NCBI RefSeq assembly: GCF_900452865.1
Contig: NZ_UGOZ01000001.1
Coordinates: 558,001-622,000 of the forward strand
Origin: Legionella taurinensis
GTDB taxonomy: Bacteria > Pseudomonadota > Gammaproteobacteria > Legionellales > Legionellaceae
Length of the DNA: 64,000 bases
Direction of reading: 5' to 3'
Part shown: piece after piece, positions 28,075 to 49,640 of the stretch
Layout of the letters: each line of letters opens with the position of its first letter
How positions within the stretch are numbered: position 1 is the first letter of the stretch
The notes under the pieces: model-generated
The model's input: the letters and a program-made list of their open reading frames with translations, nothing else
Databases searched by the model: none
Told to the model about the DNA's origin: nothing
Program-made: the position numbers and the translations under genes

Positions 28075-31000
28075 ATGTTACAAAAGGACTTGCGTTATTC
28101 AATAAGATATTGTTTTTTTCTTTTTTCCTTTTTATTGTTCAGTTCTTCTGCTTTGTTTGCCCAGCATGAACAGCACAATGTTTCAACACAACCGTTAACT
28201 TCTCCCAAGACAACAAAGCTTCAGCCTAAACCTACACAATACAAAACGGAACAACCTACCGCTAAAAAGCAATCTGTTAAAACGGTGACGCCTCTAACCA
28301 TGACAGGCGGAGCAAAGCATACGGTGAATTTGGTGGTTGCTTACAAAATGGTGAATTTTGCAGGCAAACTCAGACGCGCCATTGCCGTCAATGGGCAAAT
28401 TCCAGCGCCGACTTTGCATTTTAAAGAAGGGGATGAGGTTACCATCAATGTGTATAACCATTTGGATGAGGGAACATCCATTCATTGGCATGGTCTTTTA
28501 GTCCCTTGGCAAATGGATGGGGTAGACGAGGTGAGTCAAAAACCAATTCCTCCGGGAGGCGTATTCCATTATCGCTTTAAGCTGTATCAAAGAGGAACCT
28601 ATTGGTACCACGCTCATGCCAAGGTTCAAGAACAAGAAGGTTTGTATGGTACGTTTATTATTGATCCACCCAATCCTCCAAACTATCACTACACCAAAGA
28701 TTATGTGGTGGTGTTATCCGATTGGAGCAACAGCCCTGCTGAACAAGTGCTTGCAAATTTAAAAAAAGACGGCGATTATTACAGTCCTCGATTTCCCCTC
28801 CAACCCTCACTCATGAAGTTTCTTCATGATTATCGTAAAGCCTCTCCACAAGAGCGTAAAAAGTTAATTGCCGATTATAAAATGATGCAACAAATGCGCA
28901 TGAGTATCTATGATTTAAGTGACGTGGCTTATGATGCGTATTTATTAAATGGTTACCCTAAATCTCATCCTTGGACTGCTCCTGTGAAGGCAGGGGATAC
29001 CGTCCGGCTACGCTTCATTGGCGCGGGAGCAAGCACCATCTATCGTGTCAAAATTCCTGACGCCAAAGTGAACATGGTGCACATTCAGGGAAATGATGTG
29101 ACCCCTTATCCCATTGAGGATTTTTGGATTGCACCGGGTGAAACCTATGATATCTTGGTGAACATTCAAAAAAACAAGCCTTACATTATTTATGCCGAGT
29201 CGATTGACACGCTGGGCAAAGCTTATGGTGCCTTAGTGACTTCCCCGAATCAAGTCGTCAACTATCAGCAAGTGACTCCTTTTCCTGAGCCACTTCCTGT
29301 CACAAGAGAGATGATGGCCAACATGATGCAGTCTATGAATGGCGGGGCGATGGATGGAAACCAACTGCATGGCATGATGAACAAAAATAAATCATCAATG
29401 GCGATAAACCCATCAATGACCATGCCTTCGCATTCTAAGACCATGAGTTCACAAAGTCCTAAGCACTCCATGTCCTCCATGACTCCCCAAAAGAAAAAGG
29501 ACAATGTATCAAATCATTCAGCTCACACCTCATCCTCAATAAAATCTGACTCCTCTTCGACCTCAATGAACAAGAGCATGGCTATGCCGGGTATGAATCA
29601 TAGCGCAATGAGCCAGAGTAAGACGTCTAACTCTGCTCAAATGAAATCTGACTCCTCTTCGACCTCAATGAACAAGAGCATGGCTATGCCGGGTATGAAT
29701 CATAGCGCAATGAGCCAGAGTAAGACGTCTAACTCTGCTCAAATGAAATCTGACTCCTCTTCGACCTCAATGAACAAGAGCATGGCTATGTCGGACATGA
29801 GTCATAGTGCAATGAGCCAGAGTAAGATGTCTAACTCTGCTCAAATGAAATCTGACTCCTCTTCGACCTCAATGAATAAGAGCATGGCTATGTCGGACAT
29901 GAATCATAGTGCAATGAGCCAGAGTAAGACGTCTAACTCTGCTCAAATGAAATCTGACTCCTCTTCGACCTCAATGAATAAGAGCATGGCTATGTCGGAC
30001 ATGAATCATAGCGCAATGAACCAGAGTAAGACGTCTAACTCTGCTCATGACAACGACATATCTACGAATAGGAACATGAAGCCTGATATGCCTATGGAAC
30101 AGGGCATGTCAATGAATGATTCCATGAATATGCAGATGCCTATTGAGCCGACCATCATCGGTGATAAGATAGAGCCGCCAGGTTCATCAAAAGCCACCAC
30201 CCTGGGAACCAAATATCAAGAGTTAAAAGCCGCAGTAAAAACCAACAATCCTAATAAACCAGTCGATGGCATTATTAAAATGGAATTGTTTGGTTATATG
30301 GATCGTTATATTTGGTTTATTAATGGCCTACCGGAATACAAGGCCAAGCCGATTCTGATTGAGCCAGGAAAGCGTTATCGGATTATTTTTACTAACAATT
30401 CGATGATGCGTCACCCCATGCATATTCATGGTCATTGGTTTATTTTACGCAATGGTCATGGGTCTTACGATCCGTTATTGCATACCATTGAGGTGGCTCC
30501 TGGGGCTACTGCCGTTGCCGATTTTGATACTGAGGCCAGCGGTCAGTGGTTTTTCCATTGCCACCATCTTCTGCACATGACGGCGGGCATGGCGCGCGTA
30601 TTTCAATACACCACCATCATTGAGATTGCCAACGGCACTCGAAAGCCAGAGAATTACGCTGTTCAGCAAGCCTACATCAATCGACCGATTGTAAGAGAAG
30701 ACGAAGTTATGCCACTGGATGCGTCACTCATCAAACACCCCGCAGGGCATCATAAAGGCTTCTATCGCTCAAGTTATCTCGAACTGGGTGAAGATCCCTT
30801 TCATAATGCTCAGGAAATGTCTTTCAGAGGCCTCTATGGCCCAGATTATAATAAGCTCCAGCTGTATACTGAGGATGCGGAAATTTATAAAGGATCCGTT
30901 GAAAATGCGGACATCGATGTGTTCTATTGGCATTTGATTAGTCAATTTTGGGCTATTAAAGGTGGAGTCAATTATTTTTATCGCCCGGGAGGACCTTATT

Positions 31001-31374
31001 GGCAACCTGGTATTGGTATTGAAGGGGTGATGCCTTATTACATTGACACCAACATTAGAACGTATTACCGGGACGGCAGTGTGAAATTTGATATTCAGTT
31101 AGCGCGGGCTACTCAGCTGACCAATAACTTCTTCTTCCTAACAGGACTTCGCAGCATTCTGGCCACTCATACCGTGGTCAAGAATGAGATTGGCAATGGC
31201 TTAAACCAAATGCGTTATATCCTTAGACCTTATTATCGTATTAAGCCAGGGCTTAATATTTTTACAGAGTACGAACATGATGAAGAGTATGGTGCTCTTA
31301 AGCGGATTCTTCGAAGTCAAGGAGAGGCTACCACTCAAAATACACTAACTTTTGGGGTCGCTGTTCTTTTTTAA
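28075..31374 (+). CDS. Multicopper oxidase (CopA-like) fused to a CopB-like outer-membrane barrel
   Basis: 1099 residues. A Sec-type signal peptide (no twin-arginine motif) precedes cupredoxin domains with HWHG (137-140), YHAHA (His 179/181), HPMHIHGHW (780-788) and HCHHLLHMTAGM (828-839), the full ligand set of type 1, 2 and 3 copper sites. Between domains, residues about 410-710 form a Met/Ser/His-rich insert with five 34-residue repeats. From about 900 to the end the sequence matches CopB, with alternating beta strands ending in aromatic-rich TFGVAVLF. It would oxidise Cu(I) in the periplasm, with the barrel placing it at the outer membrane. CopA and CopB are usually separate proteins. Confidence 0.88.
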   Translation: MLQKDLRYSIRYCFFLFSFLLFSSSALFAQHEQHNVSTQPLTSPKTTKLQPKPTQYKTEQPTAKKQSVKTVTPLTMTGGAKHTVNLVVAYKMVNFAGKLRRAIAVNGQIPAPTLHFKEGDEVTINVYNHLDEGTSIHWHGLLVPWQMDGVDEVSQKPIPPGGVFHYRFKLYQRGTYWYHAHAKVQEQEGLYGTFIIDPPNPPNYHYTKDYVVVLSDWSNSPAEQVLANLKKDGDYYSPRFPLQPSLMKFLHDYRKASPQERKKLIADYKMMQQMRMSIYDLSDVAYDAYLLNGYPKSHPWTAPVKAGDTVRLRFIGAGASTIYRVKIPDAKVNMVHIQGNDVTPYPIEDFWIAPGETYDILVNIQKNKPYIIYAESIDTLGKAYGALVTSPNQVVNYQQVTPFPEPLPVTREMMANMMQSMNGGAMDGNQLHGMMNKNKSSMAINPSMTMPSHSKTMSSQSPKHSMSSMTPQKKKDNVSNHSAHTSSSIKSDSSSTSMNKSMAMPGMNHSAMSQSKTSNSAQMKSDSSSTSMNKSMAMPGMNHSAMSQSKTSNSAQMKSDSSSTSMNKSMAMSDMSHSAMSQSKMSNSAQMKSDSSSTSMNKSMAMSDMNHSAMSQSKTSNSAQMKSDSSSTSMNKSMAMSDMNHSAMNQSKTSNSAHDNDISTNRNMKPDMPMEQGMSMNDSMNMQMPIEPTIIGDKIEPPGSSKATTLGTKYQELKAAVKTNNPNKPVDGIIKMELFGYMDRYIWFINGLPEYKAKPILIEPGKRYRIIFTNNSMMRHPMHIHGHWFILRNGHGSYDPLLHTIEVAPGATAVADFDTEASGQWFFHCHHLLHMTAGMARVFQYTTIIEIANGTRKPENYAVQQAYINRPIVREDEVMPLDASLIKHPAGHHKGFYRSSYLELGEDPFHNAQEMSFRGLYGPDYNKLQLYTEDAEIYKGSVENADIDVFYWHLISQFWAIKGGVNYFYRPGGPYWQPGIGIEGVMPYYIDTNIRTYYRDGSVKFDIQLARATQLTNNFFFLTGLRSILATHTVVKNEIGNGLNQMRYILRPYYRIKPGLNIFTEYEHDEEYGALKRILRSQGEATTQNTLTFGVAVLF
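29539..30048 (+). repeat. Five tandem 102-bp repeats encoding Met-rich units
   Basis: Five in-frame units of exactly 102 bp (34 codons) start at 29539, 29641, 29743, 29845 and 29947. Units 1 and 2 are nearly identical (MAMPGMNHSAM version); units 3-5 carry the MAMSDM version. Each unit supplies five or six Met and one His, a Cu(I)-binding composition as in CopA/CusF/PcoA-type proteins. The high identity implies recent expansion and possible length variation between strains. Confidence 0.97.
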
Positions 31375-36626: not shown

Positions 36627-36819
36627 AGTGCCGCTCCTTGTAAAGGATGTGATTGCGTTATTCCAAACGACTATAAAACCAGTACTTATCTTTTTAAGTA
36701 TAGATAAGACACGATATTAGTTCAAATTTTAAACAGTATGAGAGGCATACTGTACTGGCGCACTCTTTTATAAGGATGGACTATACTAATAAAAATTAAT
36801 GAGCAAAGGAGTGCACATC

Positions 36820-37116
36820 GTGTCGCCTGAACCTAAGCATCACCCCAAGCCACCAAAGCCACAAAAAGAGACGCGCTTTTGGAGTTCTCCTTCTGGCATG
36901 GTTGCCATCATTATTATTGGGATTATTGGCTATTTCTTGATTGTAGAGCATGGTGCTCACATTGCGAGTTTTCTTGGGGCTTCGCCTTTTTTGCTGTTAG
37001 TCTTACTCTGTCCACTCATGCATCTGTTTATGCATGGAGGACATGGTGGGCATAGAGAGGATCATCACCATAAATCGGATAACGAAGACAACAATTCTTC
37101 TGAGAATAAGGATTAA
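36820..37116 (+). CDS. DUF2933 small membrane protein
   Basis: About 98 residues: a Pro/His/Lys N-terminus, two close membrane helices (VAIIIIGIIGYFLIVEHGAH and FLLLVLLCPLMHLFM) and a His/Asp-rich tail (HGGHGGHREDHHH). The pattern of VEHxAH and CPLMHLFMHGGHG is typical of DUF2933, often found near copper genes. GTG 36820 is chosen because AAAGGAG lies 8 bases upstream; an ATG at 36799 in the same frame has no ribosome site. First gene of a three-gene operon. Confidence 0.78.
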   Translation: MSPEPKHHPKPPKPQKETRFWSSPSGMVAIIIIGIIGYFLIVEHGAHIASFLGASPFLLLVLLCPLMHLFMHGGHGGHREDHHHKSDNEDNNSSENKD

Positions 37117-37122
37117 TCGAAA

Positions 37123-37788
37123 ATGGAACATACTTCTTATGCCTATGGTTTCTGGCTGTTGGTCATTGTCAATTCGGCGATTTTTATTTTATTTGCTTAC
37201 AGTTTTACCACCACGTTTAAGGCAAAGAGAGATTGGCGCGCTTTTGGGGCTTTTTCTGCTTTCGTGGTTGCCTATTTTACTGAAATGTATGGTTTTCCTT
37301 TAACCATTTATTTACTGTCTGGATGGCTTTCTAAATATTATCCTGGAGTCGATTTATATGGTCATGATAGCGGTCATTTACTCCATACCCTCCTTGGCTT
37401 GAAAGGAGATCCCCATTTTGATGTCTTTCATATCTTAAGTTTTGTCTTTATTATTGGTGGTCTTTGGGTGATTGCCTCGGCCTGGGGTACTCTTTATCGC
37501 GCTCAAAAGAACCATCAACTGGCCACAACAGGACTTTACGCCAAAATGCGTCATCCTCAGTATGATGGTTTTATCTTAGTCATGGTTGGTTTTTTATTAC
37601 AATGGCCGACTTTGATAACCTTGGTGATGTTTCCTATATTAGTTTATATGTATGTTCGTCTTGCACGTAGAGAAGAAAAAGATGCGTTGGCGGAATTTGG
37701 TGAGGAATATAAACGCTATGCTGCGGTTACTCCTGGGTTTATACCTCGTTTTAGCAAACAACAAGAGAGCAAAGGAGGTACGCCATGA
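37123..37788 (+). CDS. Isoprenylcysteine methyltransferase-like membrane protein (ICMT/NnrU type)
   Basis: 221 residues with five or six membrane helices. The C-terminal part contains LATTGLYAKMRHPQYDGFILVMVGF and RLARREEKDALAEFGEEYKRYAAVTPGFIPRF, the SAM-binding signature of the ICMT/PEMT superfamily. The bacterial substrate is unknown. It follows the DUF2933 gene by 6 bases and overlaps the next gene (ATGA). Confidence 0.8.
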   Translation: MEHTSYAYGFWLLVIVNSAIFILFAYSFTTTFKAKRDWRAFGAFSAFVVAYFTEMYGFPLTIYLLSGWLSKYYPGVDLYGHDSGHLLHTLLGLKGDPHFDVFHILSFVFIIGGLWVIASAWGTLYRAQKNHQLATTGLYAKMRHPQYDGFILVMVGFLLQWPTLITLVMFPILVYMYVRLARREEKDALAEFGEEYKRYAAVTPGFIPRFSKQQESKGGTP

Positions 37789-38279
37789 TGTTTATGTTTC
37801 ATAGTGCCGAGATGCTCGGCCTTATCGCAATTGCGCTTGGAATCATGTTGGTCGTCTGGGCATTACGTAATGAAGGGAAAAGTATTGGATTAACCAAAGT
37901 ATTTGGATGGCTGATTGTCATTAGCGGGATTTTAGGGGAATTATGCAGTACTTATTACGCTATTAAATACTGGTATGCAGGTTATTTCCAGATGCCAACG
38001 ATGTCAGGTGAGGCATTCCTATTCCATATAGCTCAGATGTTGTCTCTCATCGCAATAGCACTGGGTATTGTTTTGATAGCATGGGCTTCACGTAACGAAG
38101 GACGTGGCATGTCGCTGGCAAAAGTCTTTGGTTGGTTGGTCGTGATCTTTGCGATTTTGGGCATGATCTGTAGTGGTTATTATGCCACTGTGTATTGGTA
38201 TAAAGGATATATTCAAACACCTGCTGGTATGTCTATGTTGATGTCACATCAAATGCCAATACAGAAACAGTCACCCTAG
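37785..38279 (+). CDS. Membrane protein with internal duplication
   Basis: 164 residues built of two homologous halves (about 4-73 and 80-149), each with two membrane helices: FHSAEMLGLIAIALGIMLVVW versus FHIAQMLSLIAIALGIVLIAW, then KVFGWLIVISGILG versus KVFGWLVVIFAILG, then YWYAGYFQ versus YWYKGYIQ. AAAGGAGG precedes the ATG. The tail has a few Met. Family not recognised. It is coupled to the methyltransferase-like gene. Confidence 0.7.
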   Translation: MMFMFHSAEMLGLIAIALGIMLVVWALRNEGKSIGLTKVFGWLIVISGILGELCSTYYAIKYWYAGYFQMPTMSGEAFLFHIAQMLSLIAIALGIVLIAWASRNEGRGMSLAKVFGWLVVIFAILGMICSGYYATVYWYKGYIQTPAGMSMLMSHQMPIQKQSP

Positions 38280-38343
38280 TCTTGGTAAGTGCCATAACAA
38301 ATTGTTACGGTACTTTATAATTTTCCATTGTCTAAACCTTTCC

Positions 38344-39165
38344 TCAATGATGCTTATAAAATCCAACGCCCTTAATATCAGTCCAGGAAGTGGTTTGATG
38401 GCAAAGGAAACATTGATCTACACGGGCTTCATGCTCATGAGCCACTTTTTTTGAAATCATATTAAAATGTTCCATATAGTGACTGGGTGGTGCTTGATGG
38501 CATTGAGCACAATCCATGGAGCGCGGGGATGGGTGTCTGAATTCAGGGATGCTCCAATGAGCCGTTTCATGACAAGCAGAACAATCGTCACCAAATAACT
38601 TAAAGTGCGTGTCCTTGTTTTGATGACAAGAGGCACAGCGTAAAGTCTGTTCTTGAGGTGATAAATGGGGGTTGACCAGTAGTGTTGGCCTATTGGATTC
38701 ATTCTGTTCTAAAAAGAGTGTAACCTGATTAATAATCAACTGTTCTTCCTCATCATTTGCATTTGAAAAAGAATGGAGTTGCTGCAATCCTAACGAAACC
38801 AAAGCATTATGATCCATCTGAGTCAGGCGTGCGTTTTTACCCTGATGTTCTGTATGACACTCGACACAACGGCCTATGTTGGCATGAAATGAAGTCGGCT
38901 GGCGTTTTAATAGAGACTCATTGTTGGCATGGCAGACGATACAATTCACCGCTTCAACCCCTTTGACTGGAGTATGGCACGCATTGCAGTTGTGACTTAA
39001 GAAAGCGTGGGCCTTGGAAAGTTCTCCAGGGCTTGCCATTCTTTGCCACTCGGCCAAGTGAGTCAAACTGCTTACCTCCTCTCCATGATAAGACCGGTAA
39101 TAGGCGACAAAAGACAGTGCCGCGATTAGGGTCAGGGCAAGTAGTGTAGCCCAGCTCAGCTTCAT
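38344..39165 (-). CDS. Heptaheme c-type cytochrome
   Basis: 273 residues with an N-terminal membrane anchor/signal (LSWATLLALTLIAALSF) and seven CxxCH haem motifs: CNACH, CIVCH, CVECH, CASCH, CSACH, CAQCH and CFLCH, with extra His residues that could be distal ligands. It lies in the periplasm, tethered to the inner membrane. The start at 39165 overlaps the cytochrome b stop by 4 bases; the longer frame runs back into that gene. It is the last step of the electron-transfer operon and would pass electrons to an unknown periplasmic acceptor. Confidence 0.88.
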   Translation of the reverse strand: MKLSWATLLALTLIAALSFVAYYRSYHGEEVSSLTHLAEWQRMASPGELSKAHAFLSHNCNACHTPVKGVEAVNCIVCHANNESLLKRQPTSFHANIGRCVECHTEHQGKNARLTQMDHNALVSLGLQQLHSFSNANDEEEQLIINQVTLFLEQNESNRPTLLVNPHLSPQEQTLRCASCHQNKDTHFKLFGDDCSACHETAHWSIPEFRHPSPRSMDCAQCHQAPPSHYMEHFNMISKKVAHEHEARVDQCFLCHQTTSWTDIKGVGFYKHH

Positions 39166-39923
39166 CGAAACCACCTTAATCCAAAATAAATTCCAGACCA
39201 CACGTGCAGACCCAGCAGAACATACAATATCAGTGCTGTAATAATGTGACACGTTAACCATTTTTGAAACAGGCGTTTGAAGTGCTCATGAAAACGGATG
39301 GCGTACTCCAGCTCAGAGATGGCATCCGCTAAGCACAAAGCACGGACCTCTGCTGATTTGATTAAATGACCATTAAGTACACTGTCTTCCAGCAACCAGG
39401 AAAGAAAGCGAGCTTTCATAAGATAAAATTTCCCGATGTTTTGATTGGAGTGTGCACTCGATTGTAATTCTTGAGCCACGACTTGGTATTGCTTTTGTAA
39501 TCCCATCAGGATTGTCTTTTTTTCATCGATTTCATGAGTCATAAAGCCCATGAGATAACGGCCAATAAAACCACTAAGCGTGACAATGAGTGTCATTGCA
39601 GTAAGGGCTATACCCAGCGCGCTATTGAATTTATGCCCTGTATGAATCAAGACTAAAATAGAGCCGATGATGCCTGTGTAAATATGCCATGACAATAGGG
39701 TATTCATGGACACATACTGCGTTACCCAATTTTTCAAAAATGAAATGCGCTTAACAAAGAGATAGAGGAGCGGAATCAGCATCAATATCGAGCCACTCAC
39801 GCCAAACACACCACCCCAAAAACTCCCGGCAAAACGAGGGGATGTATGGACGGCAAAGCCTAGCCACGTGACAAGCATTAACAATATTAAGCCCAAAACC
39901 ATCATACGTCCTTGCGTATTCAT
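39162..39923 (-). CDS. Membrane cytochrome b-like protein
   Basis: 253 residues with about six membrane helices and a cytoplasmic helical insert (about 130-205). Histidines in facing helices (SWHIYTGIIGSILVLIHTGH and CHIITALILYVLLGLHVWSG) are placed to bind two b-type haems across the membrane, as in ferric reductase or DsbD/NarI-like proteins. It is encoded between the flavo-Fe/S protein and the heptaheme cytochrome with 1-4 base overlaps, so it probably carries electrons across the membrane between them. Confidence 0.78.
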   Translation of the reverse strand: MNTQGRMMVLGLILLMLVTWLGFAVHTSPRFAGSFWGGVFGVSGSILMLIPLLYLFVKRISFLKNWVTQYVSMNTLLSWHIYTGIIGSILVLIHTGHKFNSALGIALTAMTLIVTLSGFIGRYLMGFMTHEIDEKKTILMGLQKQYQVVAQELQSSAHSNQNIGKFYLMKARFLSWLLEDSVLNGHLIKSAEVRALCLADAISELEYAIRFHEHFKRLFQKWLTCHIITALILYVLLGLHVWSGIYFGLRWFR

Positions 39924-41797
39924 TAAGCATCCACCTCAATATTTTGAGTCGCCTTGGCCTGACAGGCTAAAATAAGCCCCTGTTGCTTGTCTTCCTTTGA
40001 AAGAGCATCATCACAAGCCATGGTCACCTCTCCTGACAACAAGGTCACTTTACATAACCCGCATTGACCGGTTCGACACGCATTATCAATAGTAACACCA
40101 TTGGCTTCAGCGATTTCAAGAAGCGTACGGTCTGGCAAAATCGGAACTGTTTTTTCAGATTTCCTAAATGAAACCATCGCACGGGTATCTGCTTTGATGA
40201 AATCTTCTTGTACAATTTCTGGTTTCTTTTCTGGTCCAAACGCTTCCGTTAAAATCAAATCAGCGGGTACGTTAAGCTCTTTTAAGATACCAAGGATGGC
40301 TTTCATCATCGCAGGAGGACCACAAACATGGATGCGATGAGAGGCAATATCAGGGACAAGATGGCTGATGATGTTCTTGGTAAATAAGCCTTGTAACCCC
40401 ATCCAAACGGCTCCCTCTGAACGCAGCATCGACGCATACACATGGAGATTTAAGTATCTTTCTTGAAGTTGCTCTAATTCTTCGCGAAAGATAAACTCAT
40501 CTGTAGTGCGGCAACAGTAAAGCAAATAAATGTCATTGTGCCATCCAATATCGGTGAGGTAGCGGATGATACCCATCATCGGAGTAATACCAACCCCTCC
40601 ACAAATCAGTACAATGCTTTGTGCTTCTTCACCAGTAAAAGTAAATTTACCATTAGGTCCCATTACCTCCAGTAAATCCCCTTCCTTAATTTCGTCATGC
40701 AAATAACGAGAAAACAAGCCTTGTTCTTCTCGCTTGACGGTAATGGCACAATAATGCAATTGGGTTGGGGTGGATGCCATGGTGTAACTGCGCCTGACCG
40801 TTTTACCATCAATCACCGCAGTAAGCGTAATGAACTGACCAGGATAATAGGTAAATGGCAACGCCACCTCATGTAGTGACGCCAAATGATACGTTTTTAT
40901 TCCTGGTGCTTCTTGAAAGATACGACAAACACGAAGTTTTCCTTCCCATTTCTCTTCCGGTTCGGTGAGCGATCGCATGACTGGAAATTGTGGAACTGGA
41001 CATTTATGAACGGGGCAGGTAGGAGGAGCAGTTGGGGTGGTTTCTGATGGTGCCTCAGAAACTTTAGAGGACTTCATGGGCTCTACTGAAGGAGTTGGCA
41101 CAGGTGTTTTTGAAGATTGAGGGGATACCTCCGAAGACGAAATCGAAGGTTGATTTACTAAATGGTCAAGCAAAGCAGCAGCTCTTCTCATTTTGAAAAA
41201 ATACATCCAAATCATGACCAAAAAAAACAGACCAAATAGGCCAATAATCGTTAAATGAAAAAAAGGACCACCTAAGATGTTCTCAGCTTGAGGGACGCTT
41301 GGAAGAAGATTCATTTCGCGTTTAAACCACTGCAAGGCGATGTAGCGAGTATTTTTTCCTTCCGTCAGTGCACGAAGTGTGGCCAGGGCACTCTCGTATT
41401 GCGCAATTCCTTCCCGTAATTTTTCCAAGGCCTTCTGCATTTTAGCGTAATCGTTATTGTTGGATGCGGACAAAAGCTCGCTAAGCCCACCTTTCATGAG
41501 CGCAATGCCTGATGTGATGCGCTGATGTGCCTTTTGTTGAATTTCAAGGCGTTTTTCGGGGGATAATGTGGGTAAATTCATTAAAGAGGGGTAAAGTTCC
41601 TTAGAGGGAGTCCCTATGTTTTTCATCATGCCGCTCATTCCCTCGCCTTCTTTCTCCTTTCCTCCAGGATGATGTGCGGCATGCTCGTCTGTTGTGGGTT
41701 GAGCAAAGGAAACAGAAGCCACTGCCAACAGGAACGCAACGGATAATGTTTGAAACCCTCGAAGTCGGGTAAACTTTTTAATGTATTGAAACAGCAT
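39923..41797 (-). CDS. NAD(P)H-type FAD/[2Fe-2S] reductase with periplasmic N-terminal domain
   Basis: 624 residues. Signal peptide or anchor, a periplasmic helical domain (about 30-165, start of it Met/His-rich), one membrane helix (LTIIGLFGLFFLVMIWMYFF), a Pro/Ser-rich linker with a CPVHKCPVPQFP motif, a ferredoxin-reductase module (RRSYTMAST for FAD, VLICGGVGITPMM for NAD) and a C-terminal plant-type [2Fe-2S] domain with CRTGQCGLC and a distal Cys in LACQA. The start at 41797 has GGAGG 6 bases upstream; a longer frame lacks one. It would feed NAD(P)H electrons into the cytochrome b and heptaheme protein. Confidence 0.88.
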   Translation of the reverse strand: MLFQYIKKFTRLRGFQTLSVAFLLAVASVSFAQPTTDEHAAHHPGGKEKEGEGMSGMMKNIGTPSKELYPSLMNLPTLSPEKRLEIQQKAHQRITSGIALMKGGLSELLSASNNNDYAKMQKALEKLREGIAQYESALATLRALTEGKNTRYIALQWFKREMNLLPSVPQAENILGGPFFHLTIIGLFGLFFLVMIWMYFFKMRRAAALLDHLVNQPSISSSEVSPQSSKTPVPTPSVEPMKSSKVSEAPSETTPTAPPTCPVHKCPVPQFPVMRSLTEPEEKWEGKLRVCRIFQEAPGIKTYHLASLHEVALPFTYYPGQFITLTAVIDGKTVRRSYTMASTPTQLHYCAITVKREEQGLFSRYLHDEIKEGDLLEVMGPNGKFTFTGEEAQSIVLICGGVGITPMMGIIRYLTDIGWHNDIYLLYCCRTTDEFIFREELEQLQERYLNLHVYASMLRSEGAVWMGLQGLFTKNIISHLVPDIASHRIHVCGPPAMMKAILGILKELNVPADLILTEAFGPEKKPEIVQEDFIKADTRAMVSFRKSEKTVPILPDRTLLEIAEANGVTIDNACRTGQCGLCKVTLLSGEVTMACDDALSKEDKQQGLILACQAKATQNIEVDA

Positions 41798-42225
41798 CCT
41801 TTCCCTCCAAAAGCTCACTTAAAAGGTCGATTCATGAAATGGCTTAAGTGGAGCAGTCCGCACAAGTATTTTTCTTATTCACTAAAAGACCCTTCTGTAT
41901 TTTAAGCTGAGATTATTTGTTTTCCTGTCTTCTATTAGTTTATCCCATATTCTGTAACAAATTTCCAATAACTCAAAAGGGTATGACTATGAATTCTGGA
42001 GTAATTCATTCCATTGATTAGAAACTCAGTCCAATCAGTACGTTATTTGCTCTTTTTTGAGGTTTTGTCTATTCTATAATAGACGCTTTTTTAAGAGATG
42101 TCCTCTGCGAATCTTAAAGAATGAAGAGAAGACACACGCTTTGATAACCCTATTGAGTTCAATCGGTTAAGTGCCAATTCAGCCACAGCAGAGAACATGA
42201 TGACGCCAGGATGGAGGAATTGCCA
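41798..42225. other. Intergenic region between divergent genes, with orphan hairpin
   Basis: No gene seen. At 42067-42092 the plus strand has GTCTATT-CTAT-AATAGAC followed by GC and six T, which looks like an intrinsic terminator, although no plus-strand gene lies upstream. It could end a small untranslated RNA or be chance in AT-rich DNA. Confidence 0.35.
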
Positions 42226-42600
42226 ATGGGAAGGCAATGGATAGTTTTCATAGGGTGCGTGGTCTTAAGTTTATTGACGACTGTTTCGTTAGCACAATAT
42301 CGAAATGTCGTGTTTTCGGTGGAGTACTCAAAAGCCTCTCCTATAAAAAATACTCCTCTTAAAAAAGCCACATTAATAATCAAAATCTATTATTATGGCT
42401 ATCCAAGAGGGCATTCCTCAGTGCTCACTGATGAAAAGCAACATTTCATCATGGGTTATGATGATCAATATCAAATTGCTCTTGAACTCATTGCGATTTC
42501 GGGACAAGAACAATATAAAGCCTTATGCCGTGGAGAATCGAAACCAGGGCAGTCGAAATTAATAGTCGTTTGTATGCCGTATAAGAAAAAGAACTCATAA
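42226..42600 (+). CDS. Small secreted protein of unknown function
   Basis: 124 residues with a signal peptide (about 1-24, ending SLAQY) and a beta-rich mature part with two Cys (ALCRGE and VVCMPY) that may pair. The start at 42226 is supported by GGAGG 8 bases upstream; an earlier in-frame ATG overlaps that site. In general layout (signal, beta-rich domain, Cys pair near the C-terminus) it resembles the protein at 63105-63536. Function unknown. Confidence 0.6.
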   Translation: MGRQWIVFIGCVVLSLLTTVSLAQYRNVVFSVEYSKASPIKNTPLKKATLIIKIYYYGYPRGHSSVLTDEKQHFIMGYDDQYQIALELIAISGQEQYKALCRGESKPGQSKLIVVCMPYKKKNS

Positions 42601-42630
42601 AGAGGTGGTGTGACTGTTTGCCTCGTATTT

Positions 42631-43500
42631 CTAAGTGAGCTCATGACCAATAATCACTTCCGCACTTTGCAAAATATTCTGAATTTCTTCAGTAATTTCT
42701 TCTTGGCGCAGTAAATTGAGACGATTGTTTAATGCATTTTTTTTATTTTCTAAGCGATCTAATGCCTGGTTTAAATGAAACATTCTTTGATGATTCTCCG
42801 CAAAAAACGATTGGTAAAAAATCGAATAACACATGGCCAGTAAATAATGCTCCACCAAGTCAGCGAAAAACTGGTCTTTGGATAAATTCAAAACGGGTGG
42901 CACAGAAAAATGATGCGCAGGTCTTGTATCAAATTCTTTAAAGGGCTGCCAGGTTTTTACTTGAATTTGATTTTGCTCTTCCTCATTGCAAAGAATATTC
43001 CATTGCCAAGAATGCCATGTCTTATTTCTTTGTAATAAGGCTTTTTCTAATGCTTCTAACACGTTTGCAATCACGCCTGGGATTTCTTCAATGGCATTGG
43101 GTCCATCTATTGTTGCTAAGACACGAGAATCATTAGCCATTTTTAATGCCAGTTTATGCCCCACAAGAACGAGCGCTGGTTCCAATTCAGAATGTTGCTC
43201 TTTGCGAGCTTCTAACTGATGAAGCACATTATCATTAAAAGGACCACAAAAGCCTCGTTCTGAGCCAATAACAATAGAAACCAACAGCTGATGCCCTTGT
43301 TGATTCATGGGGGGCATGGGATAGAAACTTAAAAAATCACTGCTCACCTCACGAATGGTTTTAATGACTTGGTCCTGCATGGCAAGAAATTGGGTGATTT
43401 TGCCTATTTCAATTAAAGAAAGATTTTTCATGGCCGTCATGATGTTGCCAATTTCTTCTAGGGTATGAACATGTTCTTTTAGTTTCGTTCGCTTAGTCAT
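42631..43500 (-). CDS. atpG: N-ATPase gamma subunit
   Basis: 289 residues, gamma family: N-terminal helix (KEHVHTLEEIGNIMTAMKNLSLIEI), central GSERGFCGPFND Rossmann-like motif and a long C-terminal helix (NKKNALNNRLNLLRQEEITEEIQNIL). It forms the rotating shaft inside the alpha3-beta3 head. Last gene of the minus-strand atp operon, 57 bases after atpA. More diverged than housekeeping F1 gamma. Confidence 0.85.
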   Translation of the reverse strand: MTKRTKLKEHVHTLEEIGNIMTAMKNLSLIEIGKITQFLAMQDQVIKTIREVSSDFLSFYPMPPMNQQGHQLLVSIVIGSERGFCGPFNDNVLHQLEARKEQHSELEPALVLVGHKLALKMANDSRVLATIDGPNAIEEIPGVIANVLEALEKALLQRNKTWHSWQWNILCNEEEQNQIQVKTWQPFKEFDTRPAHHFSVPPVLNLSKDQFFADLVEHYLLAMCYSIFYQSFFAENHQRMFHLNQALDRLENKKNALNNRLNLLRQEEITEEIQNILQSAEVIIGHELT

Positions 43501-43557
43501 AATCCCATCCCAGTGGTCAATGATACTGATTATTTTGGAATGGATAAGAAGTCCGTT

Positions 43558-45030
43558 CTATGCCATTAGCCACTCTTTGACAGCCTTTTTCCATTGTTCT
43601 CGCGGGCTTCCCAATGAGAAATTGCTCTGTTTTATTTCTTCCTCTATTTTGTTGAGGATTTTGGGGATGTCTTCTAAATTCAATTCGTCAAAGAAACCCT
43701 CGTTGTAGGCAATAAGCCATGCGAGTTGAAATTCAATAGGTAGTGGTGAACATCGCTCTTGTTTCAGAATTTCTCTTAAAATTCGCCCTTTTTGAATTTG
43801 CTTTTGCATTTTGGCATCCAGTTTCGCCCCAAAGCGAGTGAACATTTCCAAATCAAGAAATTGCATGTAATCGAGTTTCATTCGACCGGCTTCTTTTTTA
43901 ATTTGCGGATGCTGAGCTTTACCACCGATGCGTGAGACTGATTTGGTGATATCAATGGCTGGAAGAAATCCAGAAGAGAATAATGATTCATCAAAAAAGA
44001 TTTGCCCATCGGTGATTGAGATGAGATTCGTAGGAATATAAGTGGCCATTTCACCTTCTTTGGTTTCGATAATAGGAAGCGCTGTCATACTGCCGCCGCC
44101 CATTTCAGGGGAAAGGCAGGTTGAGCGCTCTAATAAACGGGAATGCAGATAAAAAATGTCCGCAGGAAACGCTTCACGTCCAGGAGGTCTACGCAGTAGA
44201 AGAGACAGTTCACGATAACTATTGGCATGAGCACTCAAATCATCATAGACCACCAGCGTATCGAAACCTTTTTTCATCCAGTGTTCGGCAATGGCACACC
44301 CTGCAAAAGGAGCCAGATAAAGTAATCCTGGTAAAGCCGTCGCTTGGGCCACCACAACAGTCGTATAGTCCAAGGCGTTGTTTTTTTTTAATAATTGAAT
44401 CGTAGTGCTCACTGTGGAACGCTTTTGGCCAATCAACACATAGACACAATACACTTTTTTATCATTTTGATTCATCACCATGTCAATGGCCAGAGCGCTT
44501 TTACCAAGCCCATTATCCCCGATAAGTAACTCCCTTTGTCCTTTTCCAATGGGGATTAAATTATCAATAATCTTATTGCCTGTGTACAATGGCTGATTCA
44601 CAAAGTCGCGGTGAAGAATAGGTGGTGACAACCTATCGAGCAACCCTTGTTCCTCATAGGGAGGAATCTCACCGCCATCTAATGGATTGCCTAGAGGATC
44701 AATCACTCGTCCAAGCAATTTATCGCCTACAGGAATACTCAATGCTCGCTTCAGAGGAAAAATAGAGGTGCCTGCTTTTAATTTTTTGGTTTGTACCAAC
44801 ATAACAGCGCCAACCAGGTCTTCCGTGAGATGGAACACCATAGCGATACAGCACTCATCCTCTGAAATAAGAATTTCATCAATGGTGGCAGAAGGCAAGC
44901 CCTTAATCCAGATAATGCCATCTCCGACAGAAACCACCTGTCCCTGTTCGGATGCCTTGATTTGAAATTGATAGCTCTCAAGACGTTGTCGTTGCTTCTC
45001 AAGAAAAGAAGAGGTGTTAGGCCAGTTCAT
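43558..45030 (-). CDS. atpA: N-ATPase alpha subunit
   Basis: 490 residues. P-loop GDNGLGKS, where housekeeping alpha subunits usually have [50 protein letters not shown]; and the Arg-finger region [10 protein letters not shown] are all present. It forms the non-catalytic nucleotide sites of the head. It overlaps the atpF end by 14 bases. Shorter and more diverged than typical F1 alpha, as known for N-type ATPases. Confidence 0.9.
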
Positions 45031-45760
45031 TTTTTGTCTCTGTAAAGAATTTTAATTCATCACGAAGATTGGCTTGCAAGCACATGGGACCCATTTGAAG
45101 GGTTACTCCTGCGAGAAGCTTTGGATTTTCTGTAAAGCACACTGTGAGTTTCTTTGGCACCAATTGTTCAATGACGTGTAACAGATTCTGCTTTTGGTGT
45201 TCTTTGATGGGGTAGGCCGTTTGTATCGAAACGGTTTCTTCCTCAGGTACAGTATTTAGCCATTGCCATTGTTCCACTGGGAAATGATGGAGCTCCTCGA
45301 TGGTTTTTTCAATGATTTTCTCTTCAAGATGTGCATCCGCAAAAGGGATTAACAATTTTTCAGCAAATTTCCCAGCCAAAAGGAACGCTTCCTTGGCATT
45401 GTTTTCAATGAGGGCTGAGGCTCGTTGCATTTCATGGGAAAAAATCTGCTCTTTTTCTTGACGCAATTGTTTTTCAAAATGGAGCCTTTCTTCCGATTTC
45501 CATTGTTCTATCGCCTCGTGCCACTCGTTTTGTAGGGTCGCTTTCTCTTGTTGCCAATCGGTAAGACGATTTTCATAGGTTGTTTGCAATTGTTTTGCTT
45601 CCTTGTGAAGTGCTTCAGCATTTTCTAATTGTTCTTGCACTCTTTTTTTTCGTTCTAATAGGGTTTTTTGTATGGGCGCATAAAGAAAGCGTTTTAAAAT
45701 CCAAATAAGAATAAGAAAATTAATGAGTTCTAATGAAAAAGTGGTCCAAGAGAGTTCCAT
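45017..45760 (-). CDS. atpF: N-ATPase b subunit with delta-like C-terminus
   Basis: 247 residues, much longer than ordinary b (about 160). One N-terminal membrane helix ([18 protein letters not shown]), a long charged coiled coil (about 30-150), then a globular end whose [22 protein letters not shown] resembles the last segment of the F1 delta subunit. No separate delta gene exists in this operon, so this protein probably serves as both stator stalk and delta, the usual state in N-ATPases. Confidence 0.85.
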
Positions 45761-45765
45761 TGGCT

Positions 45766-46041
45766 TTATCCCTGTTGCGTTACCAAATAAGACAATAATG
45801 GATTTCTAAAGAGAATAATCAAAACAATCACCAAACAATAAATGGCTAACGATTCGATCATGGCCAAACCAATAAATAAGGTTCTGGTGATGGATTTTTC
45901 GGCTTCAGGTTGCCTTGCCAACGCATCCAGAGCGTGACTAATCGCACGCCCCATGGCCAGGGCTGGCCCTATGGTACCTATGGCAATGGCTATTGCTGCA
46001 ATAACGGTTGACGCCAAACTAAACCAACTCATGTCATTCAT
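45766..46041 (-). CDS. atpE: N-ATPase c subunit (rotor ring)
   Basis: 91 residues, two helices linked by ARQPEA. The ion-binding helix reads GLAMIESLAIY: Glu 63, Ser 64 and Tyr 68 match the Na-binding signature ES..IY of Na-type c rings. The first-helix ligand (Gln in Ilyobacter tartaricus, Glu in many N-ATPases) is Met 30 here (PALAMGRA), so Na coordination would be incomplete. Ion specificity (Na or H) therefore stays open. Start overlaps the atpB end by 4 bases... in the order atpB-atpE on the minus strand. Confidence 0.88.
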   Translation of the reverse strand: MNDMSWFSLASTVIAAIAIAIGTIGPALAMGRAISHALDALARQPEAEKSITRTLFIGLAMIESLAIYCLVIVLIILFRNPLLSYLVTQQG

Positions 46042-46730
46042 AACGATTCTCCTTGGCTTTTAAGCTCATGGGCTTGAATACCCCCAGCAATGTAAATTAA
46101 AGCCAGCATACCAAAAATATAAGCTTGGATGATGGCTTCAATAATATGTAAAATGAGTATTGGAATAGGAGCTAAAAATCCGGCAATCATGAGGACAATG
46201 AGGGCAGTTAACTGCAAGCTCATGATATTACCAAACAAGCGGACGGCCAATGCTAACGTTCGAGATATTTCGCTGATTAAATGAAAAGGCAACAAAAAAG
46301 GAGTTGGCTTAATATAATGCTTCAAATAGTTTCGCCATCCTTCTATACGAATTCCAAACCAGTGTACCGATAAAAAAGTCATCATCGCAATTGATGCCGT
46401 CACCGATAAATCAGCCGTTGGTGAATAAAATCCCGGAATCACACCGATTAAATTGGAAACCAGGATAAAAATCCACAAGGTGGCTACAAATGGAAATATC
46501 AGCTCAACGTGGTCAGGCAATACTTCGTTCATCGCATCCTGCATGGTGCTCAAAATGCCCTCCCAAATGACTTGGTACGTGCTTGGTTGTAATAGCGTGC
46601 TTTTGCGAGTGGAGCTCCATGCTAAAAGAAATAAAGCCATCATAATGAACCACGTGGTCAAGACGCTTTGTGTGATGTGCAGCCACCCGATTGAAAAGGC
46701 AAAATACGCTAAAAATCCTTCTTCTCCCAC
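46038..46730 (-). CDS. atpB: N-ATPase a subunit
   Basis: 230 residues with about six membrane helices. The essential stator Arg is seen in SRTLALAVRLFGNIMS, and EAIIQAYIFGMLALIYIAGGIQ ends the protein. It forms the ion half-channels beside the c ring. The start is GTG at 46730, supported by AAGGA 6 bases upstream. It follows atpQ by 2 bases, leaving no room for atpR. Confidence 0.88.
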   Translation of the reverse strand: MGEEGFLAYFAFSIGWLHITQSVLTTWFIMMALFLLAWSSTRKSTLLQPSTYQVIWEGILSTMQDAMNEVLPDHVELIFPFVATLWIFILVSNLIGVIPGFYSPTADLSVTASIAMMTFLSVHWFGIRIEGWRNYLKHYIKPTPFLLPFHLISEISRTLALAVRLFGNIMSLQLTALIVLMIAGFLAPIPILILHIIEAIIQAYIFGMLALIYIAGGIQAHELKSQGESL

Positions 46731-46732
46731 GG

Positions 46733-47011
46733 TTAATCCTTAATTAAAAGATACACGTTAATGGCGCCAATAATCACCCCGACGATGATTAAATTGATGG
46801 TCCAACTAATGGAATACCCTTTTATTTTTTCATCGAGCCAAACCCCGAGATAGGCTCCTGCGATGATGGGTAAAACAAAAACAAAGCCTAAAGTACCAAG
46901 GTAAACCGTTTGGGCTAATAAAGTCGATTTCTCCTTTTTGGCTTTATTCATTTTGCGGACATTCCGTTTCACTTGTTGTTCCAGTTCCTTTTTCGAATTT
47001 TTAAATTCCAT
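46733..47011 (-). CDS. atpQ: AtpQ/AtpI-like accessory membrane protein
   Basis: 92 residues: a very basic N-terminus (KKELEQQVKRNVRKMNKAKKEK) and two membrane helices with GAYLGVWLD between them, the AtpI/AtpZ pattern. In N-ATPase operons this is AtpQ, thought to aid c-ring assembly together with AtpR. It overlaps atpC by 11 bases. AtpR, normally next, is missing. Confidence 0.75.
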   Translation of the reverse strand: MEFKNSKKELEQQVKRNVRKMNKAKKEKSTLLAQTVYLGTLGFVFVLPIIAGAYLGVWLDEKIKGYSISWTINLIIVGVIIGAINVYLLIKD

Positions 47012-47411
47012 AGGTGTTCTGCCGTTTTAATTCCCAAAACCGCTTTAACATTTCTTCATCCAAACGATGTACGCTTTCTTTAGTACGTAATAGGTTGTCT
47101 TCTTCCCAATGTAACTCTTCCTCTATGGCCCTTTGTATGGCTTGGTACTCTTTATGGCGTACATAATGTCTTGTTGCGATATGCAATTGATTTTCAATGA
47201 AATAAACCACAGCTCCTGGTAAGGCCAGATATTCCGTCTCATCATTTTCATAACGAAACCAGGCCAAGCCGAATTTTAAGCACGTCATCATTCGGCCATG
47301 ATGAGCTAAAATCCCGAATTGCCCAGAGTGGTCTTCGCCAACAAAACTCACCACTTTATCCATTGTTTCATAGTGTGTGGCACTCTTAAGATGGATGGTA
47401 AAAAGCTCCAT
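47001..47411 (-). CDS. atpC: N-ATPase epsilon subunit
   Basis: 136 residues: beta-sandwich with FGILAHHGRMMTCLKFG and the loop ALPGAVVYFIENQLHIATRHYV, then a two-helix C-terminal part (about 90-136). It couples gamma rotation to the c ring and may regulate ATP hydrolysis. It lies 8 bases after atpD. Confidence 0.82.
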   Translation of the reverse strand: MELFTIHLKSATHYETMDKVVSFVGEDHSGQFGILAHHGRMMTCLKFGLAWFRYENDETEYLALPGAVVYFIENQLHIATRHYVRHKEYQAIQRAIEEELHWEEDNLLRTKESVHRLDEEMLKRFWELKRQNTYGI

Positions 47412-47419
47412 GTCCGTCG

Positions 47420-49199
<1,780 letters not shown>

Positions 49200-49640
49200 T
49201 TATTGGTTTTTCATCATGGGGCATCCCATCATTTTACTGTCCATCATCATCTGCATCATTTGCATCATCATTTGCATCATTTTCATACGCTGTTCCATCG
49301 TTTCGGGTTGTTTTGCTGTGTCATCGTGCATATTTTTCATCATCTTCATGCCTTTTTGCATCGTGTGCATGCCTTCCTCCATCATGGGCATTTGTGTTTG
49401 CATCAAGGATGTCTTTTCTTCTGTTGTTTTCGCATTCATAAGCTTATCATGCATCTGTTGCATTTGTTTTAGTGCTTCTTGCATTTGTTTCATTTCTTCT
49501 TGGAGCTGGGTTGACTGCTGATTAGTGCTTTGCATTCCCATGTTATTCATTTGAGAACCAGAAGACATTTCTTCTGCAAAGAGTGGCGTGGCCACCAAAC
49601 TGCAAGCGGTCAATAAAATGAATACATTCCGTTTTAACAT
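49200..49640 (-). CDS. Secreted methionine-rich protein
   Basis: 146 residues: a signal peptide (about 1-22, ending LFAEE), then a helical Met/Gln/Lys-rich chain with repeated MQQM, MMEEGMHTMQKGMKMM and KMMQMMMQMMQMMMDSKMMGCPMM; roughly a quarter of residues are Met, with one Cys near the end. AAGGAG sits 8 bases before the ATG. Clustered thioether groups suit Cu(I) or Ag(I) binding in the periplasm, consistent with the window's copper genes; function is inferred. Plus-strand frames here are mirror artefacts. Confidence 0.75.
   Translation of the reverse strand: MLKRNVFILLTACSLVATPLFAEEMSSGSQMNNMGMQSTNQQSTQLQEEMKQMQEALKQMQQMHDKLMNAKTTEEKTSLMQTQMPMMEEGMHTMQKGMKMMKNMHDDTAKQPETMEQRMKMMQMMMQMMQMMMDSKMMGCPMMKNQ

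What the first reader, a model, noticed from the sequence alone, without database searches (positions are those of the whole stretch)
38344..41797. A trans-membrane electron wire: NAD(P)H flavo-Fe/S protein, cytochrome b and heptaheme cytochrome c
Overlapping genes encode a cytoplasmic reductase tethered with its own periplasmic domain, a di-haem-like membrane cytochrome and a seven-haem periplasmic cytochrome. Electrons could move from NADH to the periplasm. The acceptor is unknown; metal ions, nitrogen or sulphur oxides, or an outer-membrane partner are possible. I do not recognise this combination as a described system.
Basis: partly seen in the sequence, partly recalled or inferred. Interest (0 to 1): 0.75.

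Follow-up and report, generated by a model that had tools for sequence, protein, structure and literature searches.

The report
Electron wire in copper-resistance islands
Three overlapping bacterial genes encode what looks like a wire that carries electrons from the cell's fuel NAD(P)H through the inner membrane to a seven-haem protein outside it; the trio is found in very different bacteria, often beside copper-resistance genes, so it may supply electrons for handling toxic metal.

Summary
In a Legionella genome, minus strand, A (39923-41797; periplasmic part, one TM helix, cytoplasmic FAD/NAD/2Fe-2S reductase), B (39162-39923; five-TM protein with two HX13H motifs) and C (38344-39165; membrane-anchored heptahaem cytochrome) overlap or touch. 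It is not chance: of 80 fetched relatives of B, A lies directly upstream in 79 and C close downstream in 77; C is found at all 80, with seven haem motifs in 79. By record titles they span at least seven phyla; 52 plasmid records also match B.

New is the setting. A carries a His/Met-rich periplasmic stretch, a Met-rich gene often precedes it, and copper-resistance families lie within about 10 kb in 55 of 80 loci against 3 of 20 background windows. I read it as a split ferric-reductase/NADPH-oxidase-like wire exporting NAD(P)H electrons to the periplasm for copper/silver handling. Haems, direction and acceptor are inferred.

Parts were seen before: He et al. 2017 noted five-TM HX13H proteins beside multihaem cytochromes; B and C are, by gene order, orf1 and cyt of the Alteromonas hydrogenase operon. 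Ten literature searches found no account of the trio. Verdict: real, a new variant of a known kind.

The parts
39923..41797 (-). Gene A: signal peptide, periplasmic His/Met-rich and helical part, one TM helix, cytoplasmic FAD/NAD(P)/2Fe-2S reductase (624 aa from ATG 41797; the ORF from GTG 41818 is 631 aa)
   Evidence: upstream of B in 79 of 80 loci
41603..41701 (-). A, mature N-terminus with H..HH (EHAAHHP) and Met-rich stretch (GMSGMM)
   Evidence: sequence; H..HH and M..MM both in 64 of 76 A ORFs of at least 400 aa, against 0 of 300 other ORFs of that size in the same loci (singly 8 and 16 of 300)
41297..41617 (-). A, conserved periplasmic helical region (LYPSLM ... WFKREMNL)
   Evidence: alignment A6, 29 rows; no Pfam family above its cut-off
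41189..41281 (-). A, single TM helix, followed by KMRR (positive inside)
   Evidence: hydropathy
40640..40897 (-). A, FAD_binding_6 domain
   Evidence: E 1.1e-14
40295..40609 (-). A, NAD_binding_1 domain (GGVGITP, CGPP)
   Evidence: E 2.5e-20
39947..40159 (-). A, 2Fe-2S ferredoxin domain (Fer2)
   Evidence: E 4.3e-15
39162..39923 (-). Gene B: five-TM membrane protein with four haem-ligand-like His (H80, H94, H226, H240) and two further conserved His (H26, H97)
   Evidence: (all six invariant in 46 rows: window and 45 of the 80 loci)
39684..39686 (-). B His80, TM3, predicted cytoplasm-side haem ligand (pairs with His226)
   Evidence: side and pairing inferred
39642..39644 (-). B His94, TM3, predicted periplasm-side haem ligand (pairs with His240)
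   Evidence: side and pairing inferred
39246..39248 (-). B His226, TM5
39204..39206 (-). B His240, TM5
38344..39165 (-). Gene C: membrane-anchored heptahaem c-type cytochrome (7 CXXCH); ATGA overlap with the stop of B
   Evidence: (Cytochrome_C7, Cytochrom_c3_2); 7 haem motifs in 79 of 80 loci
42631..48817 (-). Neighbour: second ATP synthase operon, nearest to the 'alternate F1F0' (N-ATPase) type
   Evidence: alternate-type models match below their cut-offs; beta subunit in the fetched DNA of all 15 Legionella loci and none of the other 65
49200..49640 (-). Neighbour: Met-rich small secreted-looking protein
   Evidence: relatives counted (Metrich2)
36799..37788 (+). Neighbours: DUF2933 (36799-37116) and ICMT-like methyltransferase (37123-37788), a pair found in copA clusters
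   Evidence: copA clusters with DUF2933 and isoprenylcysteine methyltransferase in PMC8478169 (passages)
28075..31374 (+). Neighbour: multicopper oxidase fused to CopB

Best explanation
A, B and C form one inner-membrane electron-export complex that serves periplasmic copper/silver handling. NAD(P)H reduces the FAD of A; its 2Fe-2S domain passes single electrons to the inner haem of B (H80/H226), then to the outer haem (H94/H240), then to the seven haems of membrane-anchored C, which delivers them in the periplasm. It works like a ferric reductase/NADPH oxidase cut into two subunits, with a heptahaem cytochrome placed where O2 or Fe(III) would bind. The His/Met-rich periplasmic part of A, and in many loci a Met-rich protein encoded upstream, would hold or sense the metal. 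Most likely task: keeping periplasmic copper as Cu(I) for Cu(I) exporters, or reducing Ag/Cu ions. Shown from sequence: genes, domains, topology, conserved ligands, synteny, setting. Inferred: haem content, direction, donor (NADH or NADPH) and acceptor. My split: electron export from NAD(P)H to the periplasm about 0.8; service to copper/silver handling about 0.55; Cu(II) itself as acceptor about 0.3.
For: A has FAD, NAD and 2Fe-2S domains. B keeps two HX13H motifs in 46 of 46 rows, the layout given for the FRD superfamily in PMC3591440 (passages); across B and six distant relatives these four are the only invariant His (22 rows). C has seven haem motifs in 79 of 80. A-B-C synteny in 77 of 80. 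His and Met motifs together in 64 of 76 A ORFs against 0 of 300 other ORFs. Eleven copper families: at least one in 55 of 80 loci (28 of 49 taxon labels) against 3 of 20 background windows; two or more in 47 of 80 against 0 of 20; Met-rich or Metal_resist-type genes in 58 of 80 against 0 of 20 (Fisher p 2e-5 for loci, 0.0015 for labels). Gene D, upstream of A on the same strand in 34 loci of 26 labels (within 1.7 kb in 30 of the 34), passes the Metal_resist cut-off in a Variovorax copy, falls below it in L038, and a LTXXQ protein is its counterpart in L019. Copper context is spread over the B tree; 8 of the 9 hydrogenase loci fall in one clade. The review PMC7558416 (passages) says eukaryotic cupric reductases are haem proteins of the Fre/STEAP/Dcytb types and calls CcoG the first specific bacterial one.
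Against: 25 of 80 loci show none of the copper families tested in the fetched DNA; many are short contigs, but 9 hold 20 kb or more. Copper islands are mobile and collect passengers, so neighbourhood is weak evidence of function; the loci are related to each other and the background is 20 windows. The helical part of A matches no metal-binding family and not one neighbouring Metal_resist protein. In the Alteromonadales-type clade the trio sits with hydrogenase genes, and in Legionella with a second ATP synthase, which suggests an energy role. Reducing Cu(II) makes the more toxic Cu(I) unless export is coupled. B has no PF01794 match, only weak profile similarity to bacterial long-form FRE proteins (probability 7%, TM3 His in register) and none to MsrQ.
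Confidence: 0.5

Rival explanations
1. Redox valve or low-oxygen electron sink: the trio disposes of excess NAD(P)H into the periplasm when respiration is poisoned or oxygen is low; copper is only the setting in which this happens.
For: In Legionella a second ATP synthase is near in all 15 loci; carbon-metabolism genes (GDH, Zwf, Gnd, AdhP, GAPDH, GlgP, DUF3141 and others) lie near in 25 of 80 loci (12 of 49 labels) against 0 of 20 windows, 12 of the 25 being Legionella, 11 with GDH. Plasmid neighbourhoods show GlgP, GAPDH, DUF3141.
Against: Outside Legionella only 13 of 65 loci have such a gene; I recognised no terminal reductase beside the trio in the maps read; the Met/His-rich parts stay unexplained.
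Confidence: 0.2
2. Extracellular electron transfer: C hands electrons to an outer-membrane conduit and on to metals or humics outside the cell.
For: In L058, L067, L091 and L092 a porin-like protein (Porin_O_P by Pfam in L092) and a dihaem cytochrome c lie in the same run of genes; in L038 a Porin_O_P porin and a one-haem protein are convergent. Five distant relatives of B sit beside 21-24-haem cytochromes, resembling the PCC3 clusters of PMC5566968.
Against: The porin cluster is in 6 of 49 labels; none was recognised near the window's trio; He et al. judged porin-less multihaem/IMP sets less likely to serve EET (section 18).
Confidence: 0.13
3. Electron intake: the chain runs inward, from a periplasmic hydrogenase or another donor through C and B to NAD+.
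For: NiFe hydrogenase large subunit near the trio in 9 of 80 loci, 7 labels; on an Alteromonas plasmid the order is A-B-C-407 aa protein-maturation genes-small-large subunit, and B and C correspond by order to orf1 and cyt of the published operon.
Against: Not found in the fetched DNA of the other 71 loci, the 15 of Legionella included. Orf1 and Cyt were not necessary for maximal HynSL activity in E. coli (PMC3102683 passage), although that does not test electron flow in vivo.
Confidence: 0.08
4. B is a quinone-active cytochrome b, and the wire connects the quinone pool (not NAD(P)H directly) with C.
For: He et al. 2017 suggest this for the IMPs of PCC3/PCC4 (section 17); VIA-align ranks the cytochrome b of hydrogenase-1 and cytochrome b561 beside SpNOX.
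Against: A dedicated NAD(P)H-type reductase is encoded beside B in 79 of 80 loci.
Confidence: 0.09

Closest known systems
IMP + multihaem cytochrome + 'another redox protein' clusters, and PCC3/PCC4 IMPs (He et al. 2017, PMC5566968; passages, and sections 17 and 18 whole)
   Same: Five-TM membrane protein with two HX13H motifs on TM3 and TM5, beside a periplasmic multihaem cytochrome and, in most cases, another redox protein; no porin in most of the unnamed set. Distant relatives of B found here (L109-L112, L116) resemble PCC3 by haem numbers and layout.
   Different: Here C has seven haems, the reductase is a FAD/NAD/2Fe-2S protein with a His/Met-rich periplasmic part, and the setting is often a copper island. 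Their supplementary table 6 could not be read, so whether it lists this trio is unknown.
Ferric reductase domain superfamily (FRE, NOX, bacterial long forms; PMC3591440, passages)
   Different: The reductase is a separate membrane-tethered subunit with a 2Fe-2S domain; a heptahaem cytochrome follows; no PF01794 match.
orf1/cyt of the Alteromonas macleodii hyn hydrogenase operon (PMC3102683, passages)
   Same: By gene order these are B and C.
   Different: A is not among the genes named in the constructs; the passages I saw assign B and C no function; 71 of 80 loci here have no hydrogenase in the fetched DNA.
MsrPQ / Fre (recalled)
   Same: Recalled: a membrane b-haem protein takes electrons from a cytoplasmic flavin reductase to a periplasmic partner.
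   Different: I recognised no MsrP beside the trio (not searched for); B keeps all four His where YedZ/MsrQ has Arg for the first (PMC3591440, passages); no profile similarity to MsrQ-type proteins.
CcoG cupric reductase (PMC7558416, passages)
   Same: Inner-membrane redox protein linked to Cu(I) supply.
   Different: CcoG uses two 4Fe-4S clusters and an unknown donor; no such domain above a cut-off in A, B or C.
Geobacter CbcBA (PMC12307469, two passages; subunit details recalled)
   Same: Inner-membrane cytochrome passing electrons outward.
   Different: Recalled as quinol-fed; homology of B to its b subunit was not tested.

Membership tests
Ferric reductase domain (FRD/NOX/FRE) superfamily | Four haem-binding His, two on TM3 and two on TM5 (101/115 and 209/222 in NOX2) | tested here: met
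   Two HX13H motifs in 46 of 46 rows; H80/H94/H226/H240 invariant; TM5 spacing is 14, not 13 as in NOX2
Ferric reductase domain (FRD/NOX/FRE) superfamily | Match to Pfam PF01794 | tested here: not met
   No PF01794 hit up to E 0.1 for the window's B
Ferric reductase domain (FRD/NOX/FRE) superfamily | Fold of the TM domain | tested here: inconclusive
Ferric reductase domain (FRD/NOX/FRE) superfamily | FAD/NAD domains fused to the TM domain (long forms) | tested here: not met
   Separate gene A directly upstream in 79 of 80 loci
PCC3/PCC4 inner-membrane proteins (He et al. 2017) | Five TM helices | tested here: met
   AlphaFold2 model helices 3-25, 35-59, 73-95, 102-129 and 191-246 (last one longer than the membrane)
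PCC3/PCC4 inner-membrane proteins (He et al. 2017) | SGXXG on TM4 and WX3HX13H on both TM3 and TM5 | tested here: not met
   Strict SGXXG in 27 of 46 rows, at least one WX3HX13H in 36 of 46; in the window SGXXG and the TM5 motif are present, TM3 lacks the W
PCC3/PCC4 inner-membrane proteins (He et al. 2017) | Porin and multihaem cytochromes of many haems in the cluster (PCC3) | tested here: not met
   No such porin among the 30 window ORFs scanned; C has seven haems
Porin-less 'other MHC + IMP + redox protein' set (He et al. 2017, section 18) | Listed clusters of supplementary table 6 | not testable with these tools
NrfH-type quinol dehydrogenase cytochromes | Match to the NCBIfam NrfH model | tested here: not met
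   16.4 bits against a cut-off of 134.2
Cytochrome c7/c3-like multihaem cytochromes | Pfam Cytochrome_C7 / Cytochrom_c3_2 / Paired_CXXCH_1 above the cut-off | tested here: met
   26.2, 25.9 and 24.5 bits, cut-offs 24.8, 25 and 20.6
CcoG-type cupric reductase | 4Fe-4S clusters | tested here: not met
   No such domain above a cut-off in A, B, C
Cupric reductase (function) | NAD(P)H-dependent Cu(II) reduction | not testable with these tools
   Needs a biochemical assay

The most novel reading that the evidence does not exclude
A class of bacterial two-subunit NOX/FRE-type metalloreductases, wired to a heptahaem cytochrome and carrying its own periplasmic metal-binding arm, spreads on plasmids and islands through many phyla and is the NAD(P)H-driven cupric/silver reductase of copper-resistance islands. 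B would be the common core of a wider family in which the reductase and the cytochrome (7, 8, 21-24 haems) are exchanged to suit different acceptors.
Probability: 0.28. Interest if true: 0.8.

Novelty: new variant of a known kind. Interest (0 to 1): 0.58.

Why it matters
[quoted passage not shown] A conserved NAD(P)H-to-periplasm wire inside copper islands would be a bacterial counterpart and a further route by which cells move reducing power across the inner membrane. Because the trio is compact and present in non-pathogens, the question is directly testable. It would also give a function to proteins now called 'hypothetical', and tie them to the inner-membrane parts of proposed extracellular electron transfer clusters.

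Tried and rejected
Copper passenger only: tested with 20 background windows of 20 kb from five genomes that carry a close B (8 from G000, 4 G400, 4 G208, 2 G249, 2 G350); 3 of 20 held a copper family. The windows are few and not from the genomes of the 80 loci, and the loci are related to each other, so the p-values are rough.

Fold of B: Foldseek gave nothing at E 0.001; VIA-align ranks SpNOX, the cytochrome b of hydrogenase-1, cytochrome b561 and Dcytb high, but talin scores as well. Sequence profile against the PDB gave chance-level rows, one of them a 'putative ferric reductase' at E 0.67. The model of C was poor (mean pLDDT 63.9) and was not searched. A profile of C against the PDB sequences gave a weak match to 2a3m, named a tetraheme-subunit family protein (E 3e-5).

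Spy/CpxP-like fold for the helical part of A: not supported (one target sequence). Hydrogenase partner as the general function: rejected, 9 of 80 loci. Nitrogen/sulphur-oxide acceptor: not tested systematically. Promoter/terminator scan of 37700-42700: 13 and 3 sites, no more than the shuffles give within their spread. No tRNA in the window.

Literature: ten searches listed no paper whose listing shows A-B-C together or ties it to copper; of the listed papers I opened five in passages or sections, and PMC3591440 by its id; subscription papers and preprints are not in that library.

The B tree (quick method, SH-aLRT only) used HMM envelopes; 13 rows were cut before TM5 and their branches are unsafe. 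For the same reason H226/H240 could be counted in 67 of 80 rows (H in all 67; H26, H80, H94, H97 in 80 of 80), while the full-length alignment A4 has them in 46 of 46. The 49 taxon labels are mine, read from record titles, several of them vague MAG names; MAG contigs may be misplaced. Of the 52 plasmid records with a B match I opened 8. Of 215 relatives of B only the best 80 were returned, from a scan with one peptide pattern. Of 8 regions around distant relatives two (L113, L114) gave no B-like ORF in my ORF set.


Full report
What is there. The window lies in a genome of 3.15 Mb that I take to be a Legionella: the nearest relatives of B are Legionella species at up to 92% identity. On its minus strand three genes overlap or touch. 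A (39923-41797) begins with what looks like a signal peptide (MLFQYIKKFTRLRG...SFAQ), continues with a periplasmic part that starts near EHAAHHP and holds a Met-rich stretch, crosses the membrane once and ends with FAD_binding_6, NAD_binding_1 and Fer2 domains. B (39162-39923) has no Pfam family above its cut-off. C (38344-39165, start shared as ATGA with the stop of B) has seven CXXCH motifs and one N-terminal hydrophobic stretch.

It is a conserved unit. I aligned B from the window and plasmid records and scanned the genome collection with one peptide pattern: 215 places encode a relative, the best 80 were fetched with up to 10 kb on each side. A lies within 400 nt upstream in 79 of 80, C within 600 nt downstream in 77, all three in 77; C matches at all 80, with seven haem motifs in 79. 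The exceptions are L036, where B is fused to DUF547, L040, which looks the same, and L043, with C about 1 kb away. B also matches 52 plasmid records (49 with at least 80% of the query; 26 predicted conjugative). In a sample of 398 genomes of the same phylum, 7 (own included) hold a close B (E below 1e-50) and 18 more only distant matches; among 11 genomes of the genus 4 have it. So the trio is accessory, patchy and probably mobile; B is identical between Alteromonas and Salinimonas loci, and, over an incomplete stretch, between Stutzerimonas and Pseudoxanthomonas loci.

How it should work. In B six His are invariant in 46 rows (H26, H80, H94, H97, H226, H240). [quoted passage not shown] This is the layout given for the ferric reductase domain superfamily, where the inner haem is expected on the first His of each pair and the outer haem on the second (PMC3591440, passages). 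When six distant relatives are added (22 rows), these four are the only invariant His. Positive residues between TM2 and TM3 put that loop, and the long loop between TM4 and TM5, on the cytoplasmic side; H26 and H97 then lie on the periplasmic side. From anatomy I infer NAD(P)H to FAD to 2Fe-2S (A), inner and outer haem (B), seven haems (C), periplasm. No haem content, direction or donor has been measured.

What is it for. The strongest new fact is the setting. Clustering of neighbouring ORFs and a targeted count show copper families (CopA ATPase, CusA, CusB, PcoA-type oxidase, CopB, CopC, CopD, DUF411, DUF2933, ICMT, four-helix protein) in 55 of 80 loci and 28 of 49 taxon labels, against 3 of 20 background windows; two or more families in 47 of 80 against 0 of 20. 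A Met-rich gene D lies upstream of A in 34 loci of 26 labels, within 1.7 kb in 30 of them; by Pfam it passes the Metal_resist cut-off in one Variovorax copy and falls below it in L038. D together with two other Met-rich types: 58 of 80 against 0 of 20. A itself carries H..HH and M..MM motifs in 64 of 76 ORFs of at least 400 aa, against 0 of 300 other ORFs of that size in the same loci (8 and 16 of 300 have one of them); H..HH alone is in 69 of 79 A ORFs, 8 of the 10 misses being ORFs without the N-terminal part. The copper setting is spread over the tree of B; 8 of 9 hydrogenase loci fall in one clade, the ninth is a MAG labelled Cyanobacteria. In the window itself Pfam finds DUF2933, ICMT, a multicopper oxidase fused to CopB, an RND transporter, a P-type ATPase, DUF3141 and a second ATP synthase.

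Hence the best reading is electron export for copper/silver handling. Against it: 25 of 80 loci show no tested copper family in the fetched DNA (9 of these hold 20 kb or more), islands collect passengers, and two settings (hydrogenase; a second ATP synthase in all 15 Legionella loci) speak for energy metabolism. I therefore hold the wire at about 0.8, the metal service at about 0.55 and Cu(II) as the acceptor at about 0.3.

What is known. He et al. 2017 (PMC5566968; passages, and sections 17 and 18 whole) described inner-membrane proteins with five TM helices and two HX13H motifs in PCC3 and PCC4 clusters, linked them to the ferric reductase domain, and mentioned mostly shorter ones beside unassigned multihaem cytochromes, in most cases with another redox protein and without a porin. 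Of eight regions around distant relatives of B, five have a B-like ORF beside a cytochrome of 21-24 haem motifs (L109-L112, L116; L116 also one of 43, L109 a second of 21), as in PCC3; one (L115) has a compact set of reductase, B-like protein and octahaem cytochrome; two gave no B-like ORF. B and C are, by gene order, orf1 and cyt of the Alteromonas hyn operon, reported as not necessary for maximal activity of the hydrogenase in E. coli (PMC3102683, passages; locus L016). Copper islands with copA, DUF2933 and ICMT are described for Alteromonas, one of them with hydrogenase genes (PMC8478169, passages). My ten searches showed no description of the trio or link to copper; whether supplementary table 6 of He et al. 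lists it could not be checked. B has the His signature of the ferric reductase superfamily but fails the Pfam test, and fold and profile tests are inconclusive, so I say 'works like', not 'is'.

Verdict. Real, conserved, widespread and not chance. A new variant of a known kind: a HX13H membrane protein with a multihaem cytochrome is known in outline; the dedicated NAD(P)H-type reductase with a His/Met-rich periplasmic arm, the fixed heptahaem partner and the copper setting are new as far as I could search.

Noticed in passing
L058 4504-12786; L067 4599-12785; L091 4010-12787; L092 1518-8578; L038 7577-9251: In Alteromonadales-type loci a porin-like protein, a dihaem cytochrome c, a Met-rich protein, a small lipoprotein-like protein and D precede A-B-C in one run of genes; in a Planctomycetota MAG (L038) a porin and a one-haem protein are convergent to the trio. 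This could carry electrons across the outer membrane.
   Followed up: partly
L036 6167-7801; L040 2888-4450: B fused at its C-terminus to DUF547 in a Planctomycetota MAG (Pfam); a Hydrogenedentota MAG looks the same.
   Followed up: partly
L109, L110, L111, L112, L116: Distant relatives of B beside cytochromes with 21-24 haem motifs, and in four of the five loci a second multihaem ORF (8 to 43 motifs, two of them cut by contig ends), PCC3-like; L116 also has a 4Fe-4S/pyridine-nucleotide flavoprotein nearby, L110 a look-alike by eye.
   Followed up: partly
L115 7102-9835 (minus): Compact set of FAD/NAD/2Fe-2S reductase, B-like protein and octahaem cytochrome.
   Followed up: no
window 42631-48817: Second ATP synthase operon, nearest to the 'alternate' F1F0 type, near the trio in all 15 Legionella loci and in none of the other 65.
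   Followed up: partly
window 28075-31374: Multicopper oxidase and CopB fused in one 1099-aa protein.
   Followed up: no
L012 18685-25911: A ccm cytochrome c maturation cluster (ccmA to ccmI, ccdA) follows the trio on a Methylophaga plasmid, so the plasmid seems to bring its own haem attachment machinery.
   Followed up: no
L015 13932-14685: The B reading frame of the Legionella anisa plasmid copy looks interrupted; intact copies exist elsewhere.
   Followed up: no
window 57691-59719: Haem-NO-binding (HNOB) protein next to a GGDEF-EAL protein.
   Followed up: no
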